A DNA stretch of 64,000 nucleotides from assembly GCF_030388325.1 (NCBI RefSeq), contig NZ_CP103794.1:1178001-1242000 (forward strand), read 5' to 3'. The DNA is from Flavobacterium johnsoniae (lineage in GTDB: Bacteria; Bacteroidota; Bacteroidia; Flavobacteriales; Flavobacteriaceae). The notes under the pieces are model-generated. The model made no database searches and was not told the origin of the DNA. It saw nothing but the letters and a program-made list of their open reading frames with translations. Positions 3,124-6,680 of the stretch are shown piece after piece. Numbering within the stretch: the stretch's first letter is position 1; each line of letters opens with the position of its first letter. The translations under genes and the position numbers were made by a program.

Positions 3124-3735
3124 ATGGCTTTTGAATTACCACAATTACCTTATGCATACGATGCATTAGAACCACATATTGATGCACGTACAATGGAAAT
3201 CCATCATACAAAGCACCACAATGCATATACTACAAATCTAAATGCAGCAATCGCTGGAACAGATTTAGAAGGAAAAACAATCGAAAATATCTTAATTAAC
3301 TTAGATAAATCTAACGCAGCAGTTCGTAATAATGGTGGAGGTTTCTACAACCACAATTTATTCTGGACTGTAATGTCTCCAAACGGAGGAGGATTGCCAA
3401 CAGGAGATTTATTGGCAGCAATCGAAGCTTCTTTCGGATCATTTGAAGAATTTAAAGCAAAATTTGCTAAAGCTGGAGCAACTCAATTTGGTTCTGGATG
3501 GGCTTGGTTAACAGTTCAAAAAGGAGGAAAATTAGAAGTTGTTGGTACTCCAAATCAAGATAATCCATTAATGCCAGAAGTTGCTGGTAACGGTGGAACT
3601 CCAATCTTAGGAATGGATGTTTGGGAGCACGCTTATTATTTAAACTACCAAAACAGAAGACCAGATTATATTGAAGCTTTCTTTAGTGTAATTAACTGGA
3701 CAGAAGTTGCAAGAAGATTTGCTTTAGACAAATAA
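3124..3735 (+). CDS. sodA: Superoxide dismutase, Mn/Fe family (probably Mn-type)
   Basis: This cytoplasmic enzyme converts superoxide to oxygen and hydrogen peroxide. The 203-residue protein has both family domains. Metal ligands are visible as His27 (EIHHTKHH), the His in [11 protein letters not shown], and Asp and His in the signature [15 protein letters not shown]. The triple Gly before the second ligand and the NQDNPLM segment are typical of Mn enzymes, although metal use cannot be fixed from sequence. There is no signal peptide. The gene is monocistronic, with its own -7 box and a strong terminator. Confidence 0.95.
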
Positions 3736-3758
3736 GAGAAAAGAGAAAAGAGCAAAGA

Positions 3759-3798
3759 AAAAAGACGGATAACGTATTGTTATCCGTCTTTTTTTTTG
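3759..3798 (+). terminator. Intrinsic terminator of the superoxide dismutase gene
   Basis: A perfect 10-bp stem (GACGGATAAC / GTTATCCGTC) with loop GTATT is followed by ten T residues. Confidence 0.92.
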
Positions 3799-3857
3799 TG
3801 ATTTATATTTTTCTCTTTGTTCTATAATCTTTATTCTTTCCTCTAAAAAATAAAAAT

Positions 3858-3928
3858 AAAAAAGGTGGAATCTCTTCCACCTTTTTTGCCCCAAATCTAC
3901 CATAAACTTAACCTACTAATGTTATGGT
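3858..3928 (-). ncRNA. Candidate small RNA, array copy 1
   Basis: Minus-strand reading predicts an RNA of about 70 nt with three parts: a 5' hairpin (CCATAAC against GTTTATGG with one bulged base), the conserved linker GATTTGGGGC, and a GGTGG/CCACC terminator stem followed by T residues. The aligned promoter box is TACCTTTA, one base off the consensus, with TTT instead of TTG upstream. Direction and expression are inferred. Confidence 0.5.
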
Positions 3929-4141
3929 TTAGTAAAGGTAGTAATGGATTTTTGGGAGAAAAAACTTTTCAGATGAAATGTACTAATATCCGATAAATGG
4001 ATTGTTATTTATTGTCTTGTCCTTTTAAAGGAAAAATGAGAATAAAATAGCCTTTAGAATACGGAATGAAGAATGGGTAAAAAAGAGAATTGGGAATTAC
4101 AATATAAATATTGTTGTTTTAAAACTTATAAGGAATAAAAT

Positions 4142-4212
4142 AAAAAAGGCGGAATCTCTTCCGCCTTTTTTGCCCCAAATCTACCATAAACTTAACCTAC
4201 TAATGTTATGGT
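4142..4212 (-). ncRNA. Candidate small RNA, array copy 2
   Basis: It has the same architecture as copy 1, but the terminator stem is GGCGG/CCGCC. A T-A pair in copy 1 is a C-G pair here, so both partners changed together, which supports selection on the RNA hairpin. The promoter box is the degenerate TACCTTTA. Confidence 0.5.
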
Positions 4213-4424
4213 TTAGTAAAGGTAGTGATGGATTTTTGGGAGAAAAAACTTTTCAGATGAAGTGTATTAATATCCGATAAATGGATTGTAATTCATTGTC
4301 TTGTCCTTTTAAAGGAAAAATGGGAATAAAATAGCCTCTAGAAGTGGAATAAAGAATTGTAATAAATAGATTGGAAACTAAAATACAAAGATTGTTATTT
4401 TTAAAACTTACAGGGAATAAAAAT

Positions 4425-4495
4425 AAAAAAGGCGGAATCTCTTCCGCCTTTTTTGCCCCAAATCTACCATAAACTTAACCTACTAATGTTATGGT
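4425..4495 (-). ncRNA. Candidate small RNA, array copy 3
   Basis: The architecture matches copy 2, with a GGCGG/CCGCC terminator stem. The promoter box aligned with copy 4 is TACTTTTA. Confidence 0.5.
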
Positions 4496-4610
4496 TTAGT
4501 AAAAGTAATGAAGGATATTTCGAATTGAAAAAAATTTAGATGAAAGGTAACTATATCCGATTAAATGATATATAAGCTATTGCTTTAGAAATAGTTGAGT
4601 TTATTCCAAT

Positions 4611-4681
4611 AAAAAAGGTGGAATTTCTTCCACCCTTTTTGCCCCAAATCTACCATAAACTTAACCTACTAATGTTATGGT
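4611..4681 (-). ncRNA. Candidate small RNA, array copy 4 (best promoter)
   Basis: This copy is closest to purF. Predicted RNA start is about 4681, with a 5' hairpin of up to nine pairs, the GATTTGGGGC linker, a GGTGG/CCACC terminator stem and six T residues at 4616-4611. It is the only copy with a full consensus promoter, at 4686-4716. Confidence 0.55.
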
Positions 4682-4685
4682 ATTT

Positions 4686-4716
4686 CAAAAGTATCATTGC
4701 TTTTCAATTTTACCAA
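4686..4716 (-). promoter_or_regulatory. Consensus promoter of small-RNA copy 4 (TTG-N20-TACTTTTG)
   Basis: On the minus strand TTG (4716-4714) is followed after exactly 20 nt by TACTTTTG (4693-4686). No open reading frame follows before the hairpin terminator, so a short non-coding transcript is the natural product. Confidence 0.65.
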
Positions 4717-4781
4717 ACAAACAGGATGAACGGCAAAAAAAACCGATGAAATGCACAAATTAACCTTTTATTAATACTTTT

Positions 4782-6680
4782 TTAATAAGCTCTAGCGTCT
4801 TTTCCTTCGTAGAAATTCATAAAAGCACGATTTACGACACGATTTCCACCTGGAGTAGGGTAGTCTCCAGTAAAATACCAATCACCTAAATTTTTAGGGC
4901 ATGCGATGTGAAGATCTTCTACCGTTTGGAAGATGATTTTTACTTCAGCATTGATTTCTGGTGAGCTTAACATTTCTGCTATTTTATCTGATATTTCCTC
5001 ATTTGTAAATTGATCGTAAATTTCTGTTACATAATTTACAACATCAGTATCTGAGAAATTTTCTTGTGCTTTACATTTTGCATAAACTTCATCTACAATA
5101 TGGTAAAGGTTTCTTTCTTTTAATAAAGCAAGTGCTGCTCTAAAAGCAACTAAACCTTCTAGTTTTGCCATATCAATTCCGTAACAATCTGGGTAACGAA
5201 TTTGTGGTGCAGATGAAACAATTACAATACGTTTTGGTTTTAAACGATCCATCATTTTAATGATGCTCATTTTCAGAGTAGTTCCACGAACAATACTATC
5301 GTCAATAATAACCAAATTGTCTTCTGGTTTAATTACGCCATATGTAACATCGTAAACGTGAGCAACTAAATCGTCACGGCTGCTGTCTTCTGTAATAAAG
5401 GTTCTAAGTTTAGCATCTTTAATAGCCACTTTTTCTGTACGTATTTTTACAGCTAAAAGTTCTTGAAGTGTTTCAGCCGTTAAAGTATTTCTATTTTCTA
5501 GAATATAATTGTTTTTTCTCTGATTTAAGAAATCCTGAGCAGCTTCTACTAAACCATAAAATGAAGTTTCGGCTGTATTCGGAATATAAGAGAAAACAGT
5601 GTTGTCTGTATCGCTGTCGATTGCTTTAAGAACTGCTGGTAAAATTAATTTACCTAAATCTTTACGTTCTTGATAGATTTCAGCGTCGCTTCCTCTTGAG
5701 AAATAAATTCTTTCAAAAGAACAAGCTTTTTTAACTGTTGGCTCCAAGATTTGTTTCATAGAAACATTTCCATTTTTTTTGATAATCAAAGCATTTCCTG
5801 GATCGATTTCCTGAACGCTTTCAAAAGGAACATTAAATACAGTTTGAATAACAGGTCTTTCTGAAGCTACAACAACCACTTCATCATCTTGATAAAAGTA
5901 AGCTGGACGTATTCCTGCGGGATCTCTAAATACAAAAGCATCTCCATGACCTAATAAACCAGCCATTGCGTAACCGCCATCTAGGTTTTTAGCTGAACGA
6001 GCTAAGATTTTTGCAATATCCAAACGCTCGGCAATTACTGGCGAAGCTTCTCTTTTAGAATAACCTTCAGCTTTACAGTCTTGGTACAATTGCATAACTT
6101 CTTTATCTAAGAAGTGACCAATTTTTTCCATTACTGTAACAGTATCTGCCATTTCTTTTGGGTGCTGTCCTAATTCCACTAGATTTTCGAAAAGTTCTTT
6201 AACATTCGTCATGTTGAAGTTTCCAGCCAAAATCAAATTACGGTGCATCCAGTTACTTTGACGTAAGAAAGGGTGAACACTTTCGATGCTATTTTTTCCA
6301 AAAGTTCCGTAACGAACGTGTCCTAAAAACAATTCGCCAACATAAGGAATTTGTGATTTTATTTTATCGACATCTTCACCAATTTCTGGATTAGCTTTTA
6401 ACTCTTCGCTGATTCTCTCATTGATTTGTTTAAAAACATCTTGTATTGGCTGCGAATGATTCGAACGTACTCTGCTGATGTAGCGTTGTCCAGGTTCAAC
6501 ATCCAGTTTAATGCTTGCAAAACCAGCACCGTCTTGTCCGCGGTTGTGCTGTTTTTCCATCATTAAATACATTTTCTGAATTCCGTAAAACGCAGTTCCG
6601 TATTTTTCTTTATAATATTCAAGCGGTTTTAGTAGTCTAACTAAGGCTATCCCACATTCGTGTTTTAAAGCGTCGCTCAT
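4782..6680 (-). CDS. purF: Amidophosphoribosyltransferase, long flavobacterial form
   Basis: The enzyme catalyses the first committed step of purine synthesis, moving ammonia from glutamine to PRPP. The N-terminal class II glutamine amidotransferase domain starts with the catalytic Cys9 in HECGIALV, which implies removal of an eight-residue propeptide. The phosphoribosyltransferase domain carries the PRPP loop VIIDDSIVRGTT near residue 460 and the later YPDCYGIDM segment. At 632 residues it is longer than classical PurF (about 500), with extra sequence within and after both domains. It lies downstream of a PfkB kinase gene, separated by a hairpin terminator. A second PurF may exist elsewhere, so a paralogous role cannot be excluded. 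Confidence 0.88.
   Translation of the reverse strand: MSDALKHECGIALVRLLKPLEYYKEKYGTAFYGIQKMYLMMEKQHNRGQDGAGFASIKLDVEPGQRYISRVRSNHSQPIQDVFKQINERISEELKANPEIGEDVDKIKSQIPYVGELFLGHVRYGTFGKNSIESVHPFLRQSNWMHRNLILAGNFNMTNVKELFENLVELGQHPKEMADTVTVMEKIGHFLDKEVMQLYQDCKAEGYSKREASPVIAERLDIAKILARSAKNLDGGYAMAGLLGHGDAFVFRDPAGIRPAYFYQDDEVVVVASERPVIQTVFNVPFESVQEIDPGNALIIKKNGNVSMKQILEPTVKKACSFERIYFSRGSDAEIYQERKDLGKLILPAVLKAIDSDTDNTVFSYIPNTAETSFYGLVEAAQDFLNQRKNNYILENRNTLTAETLQELLAVKIRTEKVAIKDAKLRTFITEDSSRDDLVAHVYDVTYGVIKPEDNLVIIDDSIVRGTTLKMSIIKMMDRLKPKRIVIVSSAPQIRYPDCYGIDMAKLEGLVAFRAALALLKERNLYHIVDEVYAKCKAQENFSDTDVVNYVTEIYDQFTNEEISDKIAEMLSSPEINAEVKIIFQTVEDLHIACPKNLGDWYFTGDYPTPGGNRVVNRAFMNFYEGKDARAY

What the first reader, a model, noticed from the sequence alone, without database searches (positions are those of the whole stretch)
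3858..4716. Tandem array of four candidate small RNAs next to purF
Four copies of a block of about 70 nt sit in a gene-free kilobase. Each copy predicts, on the minus strand, a 5' hairpin, the invariant linker GATTTGGGGC and an intrinsic terminator. Copies 1-3 are true tandem duplications of about 284 nt including spacer. Multi-copy small-RNA arrays are known in bacteria, but I do not recognise this one. Tandem retention suggests dosage or stepwise regulation.
Basis: partly seen in the sequence, partly recalled or inferred. Interest (0 to 1): 0.8.

Follow-up and report, generated by a model that had tools for sequence, protein, structure and literature searches.

The report
Family-wide antisense small-RNA array
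Four copies of a small-RNA gene sit in a row here; the same RNA recurs through most of one bacterial family and appears shaped to pair, over about 45 letters, with the start of a few messenger RNAs that share its DNA switch, so it probably turns those messages off.

Summary
The four minus-strand units are real: each has its own promoter, an identical 40-nt core and an intrinsic terminator. No Rfam family matches at threshold. The core is in 100 of 150 sampled genomes of the genus. A covariance model finds it in 240 of 299 genomes of the family (11 weak hits dropped), and a core-only model hit nothing outside the family in a phylum sample of 395. The order purF, RNA array, sod is kept across genera.

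I propose a target. The leader of a CAP-domain lipoprotein mRNA pairs with nearly the whole 5' domain of the RNA, ending on the start codon: -38.5 kcal/mol in this genome, -34.9 or better in 27 of 30 examined loci of the genus. In five other genera a 30-42 aa ORF has such sites, two or three in four of them.

RNA and CAP promoters share a two-repeat operator resembling LytTR sites, 20 bp nearer the -10 at CAP. Best reading: a LytTR-type regulator drives a multicopy sRNA that blocks translation of co-regulated genes. Expression, repression and the regulator's identity are inferred. Genomes lacking the RNA were not tested for the leader.

The parts
3856..3927 (-). sRNA copy 1: 5' hairpin, linker GATTTGGGGC, terminator (hairpin arms 3858-3887)
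4140..4211 (-). sRNA copy 2
4423..4494 (-). sRNA copy 3
4609..4680 (-). sRNA copy 4, nearest to purF
3933..3940 (-). -10-like element of copy 1, TACCTTTA
   Evidence: consensus position, not a mapped start
4217..4224 (-). -10-like element of copy 2, TACCTTTA
4500..4507 (-). -10-like element of copy 3, TACTTTTA
4686..4693 (-). -10 element of copy 4, TACTTTTG
3969..4003 (-). two-repeat operator of copy 1 (TTTATCGG, then TTCATCTG 20 bp on)
4253..4287 (-). two-repeat operator of copy 2
4536..4570 (-). two-repeat operator of copy 3
4722..4756 (-). two-repeat operator of copy 4 (GCATTTCATCGG, then CCGTTCATCC)
4782..6680 (-). purF-like gene, conserved upstream neighbour
3124..3735 (+). Fe/Mn superoxide dismutase gene, conserved convergent neighbour (its own terminator-like repeat at 3755-3797)

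Best explanation
The array encodes four copies of a roughly 72-nt trans-acting antisense sRNA characteristic of the family (Flavobacteriaceae). Each copy has its own TAnnTTT[GA] promoter under a two-repeat operator, probably bound by a LytTR-type regulator, and ends at an intrinsic terminator. Nearly the whole 5' domain (about nt 2-45) pairs with target leaders up to and over the start codon, and so most likely blocks translation initiation. In Flavobacterium the target is a CAP-domain lipoprotein mRNA; in five other genera a 30-42 aa ORF. The same operator lies on the CAP promoters, 20 bp nearer the -10, so one regulator likely sets both sRNA and target (feed-forward). Extra copies would raise RNA dose. 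Shown by computation: anatomy, distribution, synteny, conserved pairing, shared operator. Inferred: expression, repression, which protein binds, the sign of the circuit, the physiology.
For: RNA anatomy and covarying terminator. Family-wide near-invariant core at a fixed locus. CAP leader pairing of -38.5 in this genome and -50.1, -49.8, -52.7 in two others; 29 of 36 CAP ORFs in 30 loci at -34.9 or better, against -22.7 for the best of 29 other ORFs there; leader by leader 0 of 3200 shuffled-core energies as low, and leader identity 0.70 against 0.39 upstream and 0.50 in the frame, for 32 leaders selected by a partial motif. Best of 377 control and 44 susC start regions of this genome: -23.8. 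Same short ORF with start-codon site in five genera. Operator matrix: 32 of 32 CAP promoters above all 376 controls. LytTR likeness.
Against: No transcript, protein or mutant data. 7 of 36 CAP ORFs lack the strong site (one is cut by the locus edge) and 3 of 30 loci have none. All 40 genomes were chosen among carriers of the RNA, so absence of the leader where the RNA is absent was not tested; 3 of 40 had no CAP match. Hairpin covariation is weak, and isolated 5' domains of three variants are not clearly more stable than shuffles. Small-ORF sites were found with a model of the sRNA, so their energies are selected and were not shuffle-tested. The regulator gene is unknown; some sRNA operators score poorly on their own matrix (minimum -29.7).
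Confidence: 0.74

Rival explanations
1. The RNA works mainly by binding a protein (an RRM protein like RbpB, or titration as by CsrB or 6S RNA), which would explain the frozen core; CAP pairing is secondary.
For: Loop and linker are almost invariant over the family, more than one or two mRNA targets seem to require; RbpB binds multicopy sRNAs in Bacteroides (PMC11697453, passages).
Against: Complementary leaders are conserved and end on the start codon, and the target promoters share the operator. No binding protein was looked for.
Confidence: 0.1
2. The CAP and small-ORF leaders are sponges or mimics that sequester the sRNA, whose main targets are other mRNAs not found here.
For: Pairing is much longer than usual for trans-acting sRNAs, and small-ORF leaders often carry two or three sites.
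Against: The main site always reaches the start codon of an ORF conserved in length or domain. The target survey was partial.
Confidence: 0.1
3. It is the flavobacterial counterpart of FopS and silences susC-type transporters.
For: Sub-threshold FopS alignment shares AUGGU..AGAUUU..GG (19.5 bits); loop pairing to 44 susC starts slightly better than to 377 controls (p 0.001; 1 of 20 shuffled loops as good).
Against: FopS cut-off is 56 bits; linker pairing to susC starts is no better than to controls (p 0.996) and the whole core not significantly (p 0.13); the susC leader motif AACCAA (23 of 44 against 18 of 377) has no exact complement in this RNA.
Confidence: 0.03
4. Only a string of terminators or a DNA repeat, with no RNA function.
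For: The terminator hairpin is strong on both strands; the best Rfam hit, STnc40, is mostly the terminator and hits both strands.
Against: The invariant part lies before the terminator, which varies freely; promoter and operator are conserved.
Confidence: 0.02

Closest known systems
FopS / GibS multicopy sRNAs of Bacteroides (RF04319; PMC11697453: abstract, outline and passages seen)
   Same: Multicopy sRNAs of Bacteroidota with their own promoters and terminators; pairing at the start codon of target mRNAs; a short shared stretch AUGGU..AGAUUU in the Rfam alignment
   Different: 19.5 bits against a cut-off of 56; here one tandem locus, not 14 scattered genes; pairing over about 45 nt; CAP lipoprotein or small peptide rather than SusC; a 5' hairpin
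Rfp18 and other Rfp RNAs of Flavobacterium psychrophilum (PMC9723704: abstract, passages and the small-RNA section read)
   Same: Flavobacterium sRNAs, some conserved in the genus
   Different: Rfp18 has at least three stem-loops and acts on metalloproteases; this RNA has two hairpins. Sequences of the other Rfp RNAs were not seen, so one of them could be this RNA
LytTR-controlled regulatory RNA, such as RNAIII under AgrA (recalled)
   Same: Regulatory RNA promoter with a LytTR-like direct repeat upstream
   Different: RNAIII is long, single-copy and encodes a peptide; the regulator here is unknown
Type I toxin-antitoxin pairs (recalled)
   Same: Antisense RNA with long pairing to a short-peptide mRNA, in five genera here
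   Different: RNA and target at separate loci; toxicity untested; in Flavobacterium the target is a lipoprotein of about 167 aa

Membership tests
Trans-acting antisense sRNA | independent promoter and intrinsic terminator | tested here: met
   (by sequence only)
Trans-acting antisense sRNA | conserved complementarity to mRNAs encoded elsewhere, near the start codon | tested here: met
Trans-acting antisense sRNA | expression and effect on the target | not testable with these tools
   needs RNA-seq, mutants, reporters
FopS (RF04319) | score at or above the Rfam gathering threshold of 56 bits | tested here: not met
   18.0 to 19.5 bits
FopS (RF04319) | pairing with susC start regions | tested here: not met
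   linker p 0.996, core p 0.13, loop p 0.001 in one genome
STnc40 (RF02057) | score at or above 45 bits | tested here: not met
   35.6 bits at best, terminator-driven, also on the other strand
LytTR-type operator | two 9-11 nt repeats separated by 11-13 nt | tested here: met
   repeats 20 bp apart against the description in PMC4847170; half-sites resemble those of YpdB and AlgR
LytTR-type operator | binding by a LytTR protein | not testable with these tools
   only hint: a LytTR-domain gene near a second diverged array in another genus, whose repeats differ
Type I toxin-antitoxin | toxic small peptide silenced by antisense RNA | not tested
   short ORF and pairing in five genera; toxicity unknown; this genome was not searched for the ORF

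The most novel reading that the evidence does not exclude
An ancient family-wide circuit in which one LytTR regulator controls both a dose-set array of antitoxin-like antisense RNAs and a small amphipathic peptide; in Flavobacterium a CAP lipoprotein took over the same operator and antisense leader. Unrelated proteins would join the circuit by acquiring an inverted copy of the sRNA as their leader, while the sRNA itself stays frozen.
Probability: 0.15. Interest if true: 0.85.

Novelty: new variant of a known kind. Interest (0 to 1): 0.72.

Why it matters
An RNA this conserved, at a fixed locus in most sampled genera of a large family and absent from Rfam, would give flavobacteria a small RNA with a named predicted target and a predicted type of regulator. 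Pairing of nearly the whole 5' domain with mRNAs encoded elsewhere, sometimes at tandem sites and under a shared operator, is unusual for trans-acting RNAs and makes dosage and feed-forward control directly testable in a laboratory strain. It also offers a case where targets turn over while the sRNA stays fixed.

Tried and rejected
Rfam: no gathering-level hit in the array. susC targeting not supported as main role. A 14-nt perfect match at a metalloprotease start (L227): in a search of 121 genus genomes the site extended by ATG was exact in only two listed places (this genome and G036); among 30 fetched loci only this genome's own had it at that gene's start. In this genome the 14-mer at 2 mismatches or fewer is no commoner than its reversed control (291 against 321). 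Dual-operator sites elsewhere in this genome: 70 at 1 mismatch or fewer (control 22), 30 inspected; only the four array sites have the -10 element at 37 nt; one other (L334) has a 5-of-6 match at 36 nt and was not followed. A peptide reading of the core (MVDLGQK...) was dropped because one extra A shifts the frame in several genera. Hits outside the family with model R1 (6 of 246 genomes, E 8.5e-4 to 4.8e-3) were not inspected; the core-only model found none. Weak rows: 32, of which 21 inspected (one, 20): 5 small-ORF leaders, 1 leader of a 127-aa ORF, 1 extra sRNA with terminator, 14 not convincing (three are one recurring coding sequence); 11 not inspected. The CAP gene of this genome was at hand by luck: L232 had been fetched for an unrelated match about 800 nt away.

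Rows dropped before counts: A2 holds 31 of 35 distinct sequences; A3 holds 34 of the 46 distinct cores, out-of-register or odd ones left out; 5 of 382 control ORFs dropped as susC-like; 11 of 251 family hits dropped as weak. A few kept weak ones (L160, L162, L164) are doubtful too.

Full report
OBSERVATION. The gap 3736-4781 holds four minus-strand units. Their 40-nt core is identical; each folds into a 5' hairpin, a free linker and a terminator, with 0 of 200 shuffles as stable. Copies 1 and 2 are a 284-bp duplication at 96%; copies 3 and 4 differ more outside the core. Rfam has nothing at its gathering scores in the array; the best sub-threshold hit, STnc40, is mostly the terminator and appears on both strands.

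DISTRIBUTION. The core with at most 3 mismatches is in 100 of 150 sampled genomes of the genus, this one included, and the reversed-pattern control is zero in the listed genomes. All 80 named loci kept by a purF search (the best of 584; by title Flavobacterium or close kin) carry 1 to 5 copies right after purF, on its strand: 9, 45, 19, 6 and 1 loci with 1, 2, 3, 4 and 5 copies. These lean to near relatives. With covariance model R1 (31 sequences, 22 pairs), 251 of 299 family genomes (203 of 236 genera) matched at E 0.01. Eleven of these have best E of only 3.2e-4 to 9.9e-3 and show no core on inspection, leaving 240; a few of the weaker kept ones are doubtful. In an order sample 6 genomes outside the family matched, all at E 8.5e-4 or worse. 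A core-only model R2 matched 33 of 395 genomes of a phylum sample, all in the same family; 8 listed family genomes had no match (strict filters for large samples). One of those, G651, has a diverged copy at the usual place (L381). Of 47 family loci, purF lies within the 1.5-kb flank in 43 and sod as well in 40.

SIGNATURE. Loci L006-L192 hold only 46 distinct core sequences. The terminator stem changes but keeps pairing: 8 of 13 pairs changed on both sides, 0 of 500 shuffles as many. The 5' hairpin is kept in 92.9% of cells (34 of 46 cores used), but covariation is weak: 2 pairs changed on both sides, 75 of 500 shuffles as many, and three variant 5' domains folded alone are not clearly better than shuffles. 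What is fixed is mainly the letters of hairpin, loop and linker.

PROMOTER. In 183 Flavobacterium upstream regions (copies and near relatives, so not independent) the layout is TTYATCGG at -70, TTYATCT at -50, TTT(G) near -36 and TAnnTTT[GA] at -13; 77 regions of other genera show it with more drift. Operator start to -10 is 63 nt in 181 of 183. The window's copies conform. The repeats look like LytTR sites: passages of PMC4847170 describe two 9-11 nt repeats with an 11-13 nt spacer and the YpdB half-site GGCATTTCAT, against TGCATTTCAT at copy 4; passages of PMC4064291 give AlgR's CCGTTCGTC, against CCGTTCATC at copy 4. In genome G245 a second, diverged array (five model matches, two of them weak) has another repeat pair, CCACTTAT, and lies about 0.7 kb from a gene with a LytTR domain (23.1 bits, cut-off 22.6).

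TARGET. The four weak rows turned out to be the opposite strand of mRNA leaders. Two tandem CAP-domain lipoprotein genes in G556, one in G551 and the orthologue in this genome (L232, G000:C1 about 4,444,301-4,444,804, minus strand; PF00188 at 46.9 bits) pair with sRNA nt 2-45 or 2-46 at -50.1, -49.8, -52.7 and -38.5 kcal/mol, reaching the start codon. I then chose 40 genus genomes that carry the sRNA; 37 encode the protein. Loci were given for 30 of them and hold 36 homologous ORFs: 29 at -34.9 or better, one at -27.0, six weaker than -21, one of which (L399_1) is cut by the locus edge. By locus, 27 of 30 have a strong site. 29 other ORFs in these loci reach -22.7 at best. In this genome the best of 377 control and 44 susC start regions is -23.8. 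For 32 leaders selected by a partial motif, leader by leader 0 of 3200 shuffled-core energies are as low, and the leader is more conserved (0.70) than the stretch upstream (0.39) or the start of the frame (0.50). Typical leader: TTTGCCCCACAATCTACTTTAAACTTAAACTACTAA-ATTATG. Genomes without the sRNA were not examined.

OTHER GENERA. R2 over 40 other-genus genomes (38 genera) gave 32 weak rows; 21 were inspected (and L380). Five genomes of five genera have a 30-42 aa ORF ending in [LV][TA]KK[LVI]F[MT][LF], with the main site running from about -36 to -29 into the start codon at -38.0 to -46.9 kcal/mol; four of the five have a second site at -27 or better and two a third. Four database proteins resemble the peptide; Pfam has no match for two of the ORFs tried. 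A 127-aa ORF (L428) has a site at -49.1. These were found with a model of the sRNA, so the energies are selected; the recurrence of the same ORF is the evidence.

SHARED OPERATOR. A weight matrix of the sRNA operators scores all 32 CAP promoters (1.6 to 31.6) above all 376 control upstream regions (top 1.2), though some sRNA operators themselves score poorly. At CAP the operator starts 43-44 nt before TAnnTTTG in 22 of 32, 20 bp closer than in the sRNA. Leaders L380, L412, L416 and L419 show similar repeats by eye; L426 and L428 do not. Upstream of the promoter for the sRNA and over it for CAP would suit activation of the first and repression of the second; that sign is inference.

MECHANISM. 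A signal acts on a LytTR-type regulator (inferred); it turns on the sRNA genes (elements shown, activity inferred); the sRNA pairs with leader and start codon (shown as conserved complementarity); translation is blocked and the mRNA perhaps degraded (inferred). The hairpin (about -6.5 kcal/mol) is weak beside -35 to -53 for the duplex.

KNOWN OR NEW. It works like FopS in its multicopy nature and start-codon pairing, but is not a member: 18.0-19.5 bits against 56, and susC pairing not met. Searches of an open-licence full-text library listed no paper that I could recognise as describing this RNA. Of the papers, I read the small-RNA section of PMC9723704 (also outline and passages) and passages of PMC11697453, PMC5395568, PMC6193735, PMC4847170 and PMC4064291. 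PMC9723704 names Rfp1-89, some conserved in the genus, without sequences in the text seen, and PMC5395568 reports F. columnare candidates without Rfam match; either may include this RNA. Supplements were not open to me.

Noticed in passing
this genome's susC loci L193-L222, L253-L266: susC-type start regions share a leader motif around AACTAACCAA: AACCAA in 23 of 44 against 18 of 377 control start regions. It is not an exact complement of this RNA; it may be a target site of another sRNA or a translation signal.
   Followed up: partly
L377:4545-5418 (G245): A second array of diverged copies with different operator repeats near a LytTR-domain gene, beside a Crp-like gene.
   Followed up: partly
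L380, L412, L416, L419, L426: A conserved 30-42 aa amphipathic-looking ORF, not in Pfam for the two tried, lies near ABC-transporter or CoA-transferase genes and carries the sRNA sites.
   Followed up: partly
L128 (G303), L414 (G435), G163:C1:980915: Some genera have extra sRNA copies away from the purF-sod locus.
   Followed up: no
L227:1501-1516: A zinc-metalloprotease-like gene of this genome has a 14-nt perfect complement to the RNA just before its start codon; not conserved in the genus sample.
   Followed up: yes
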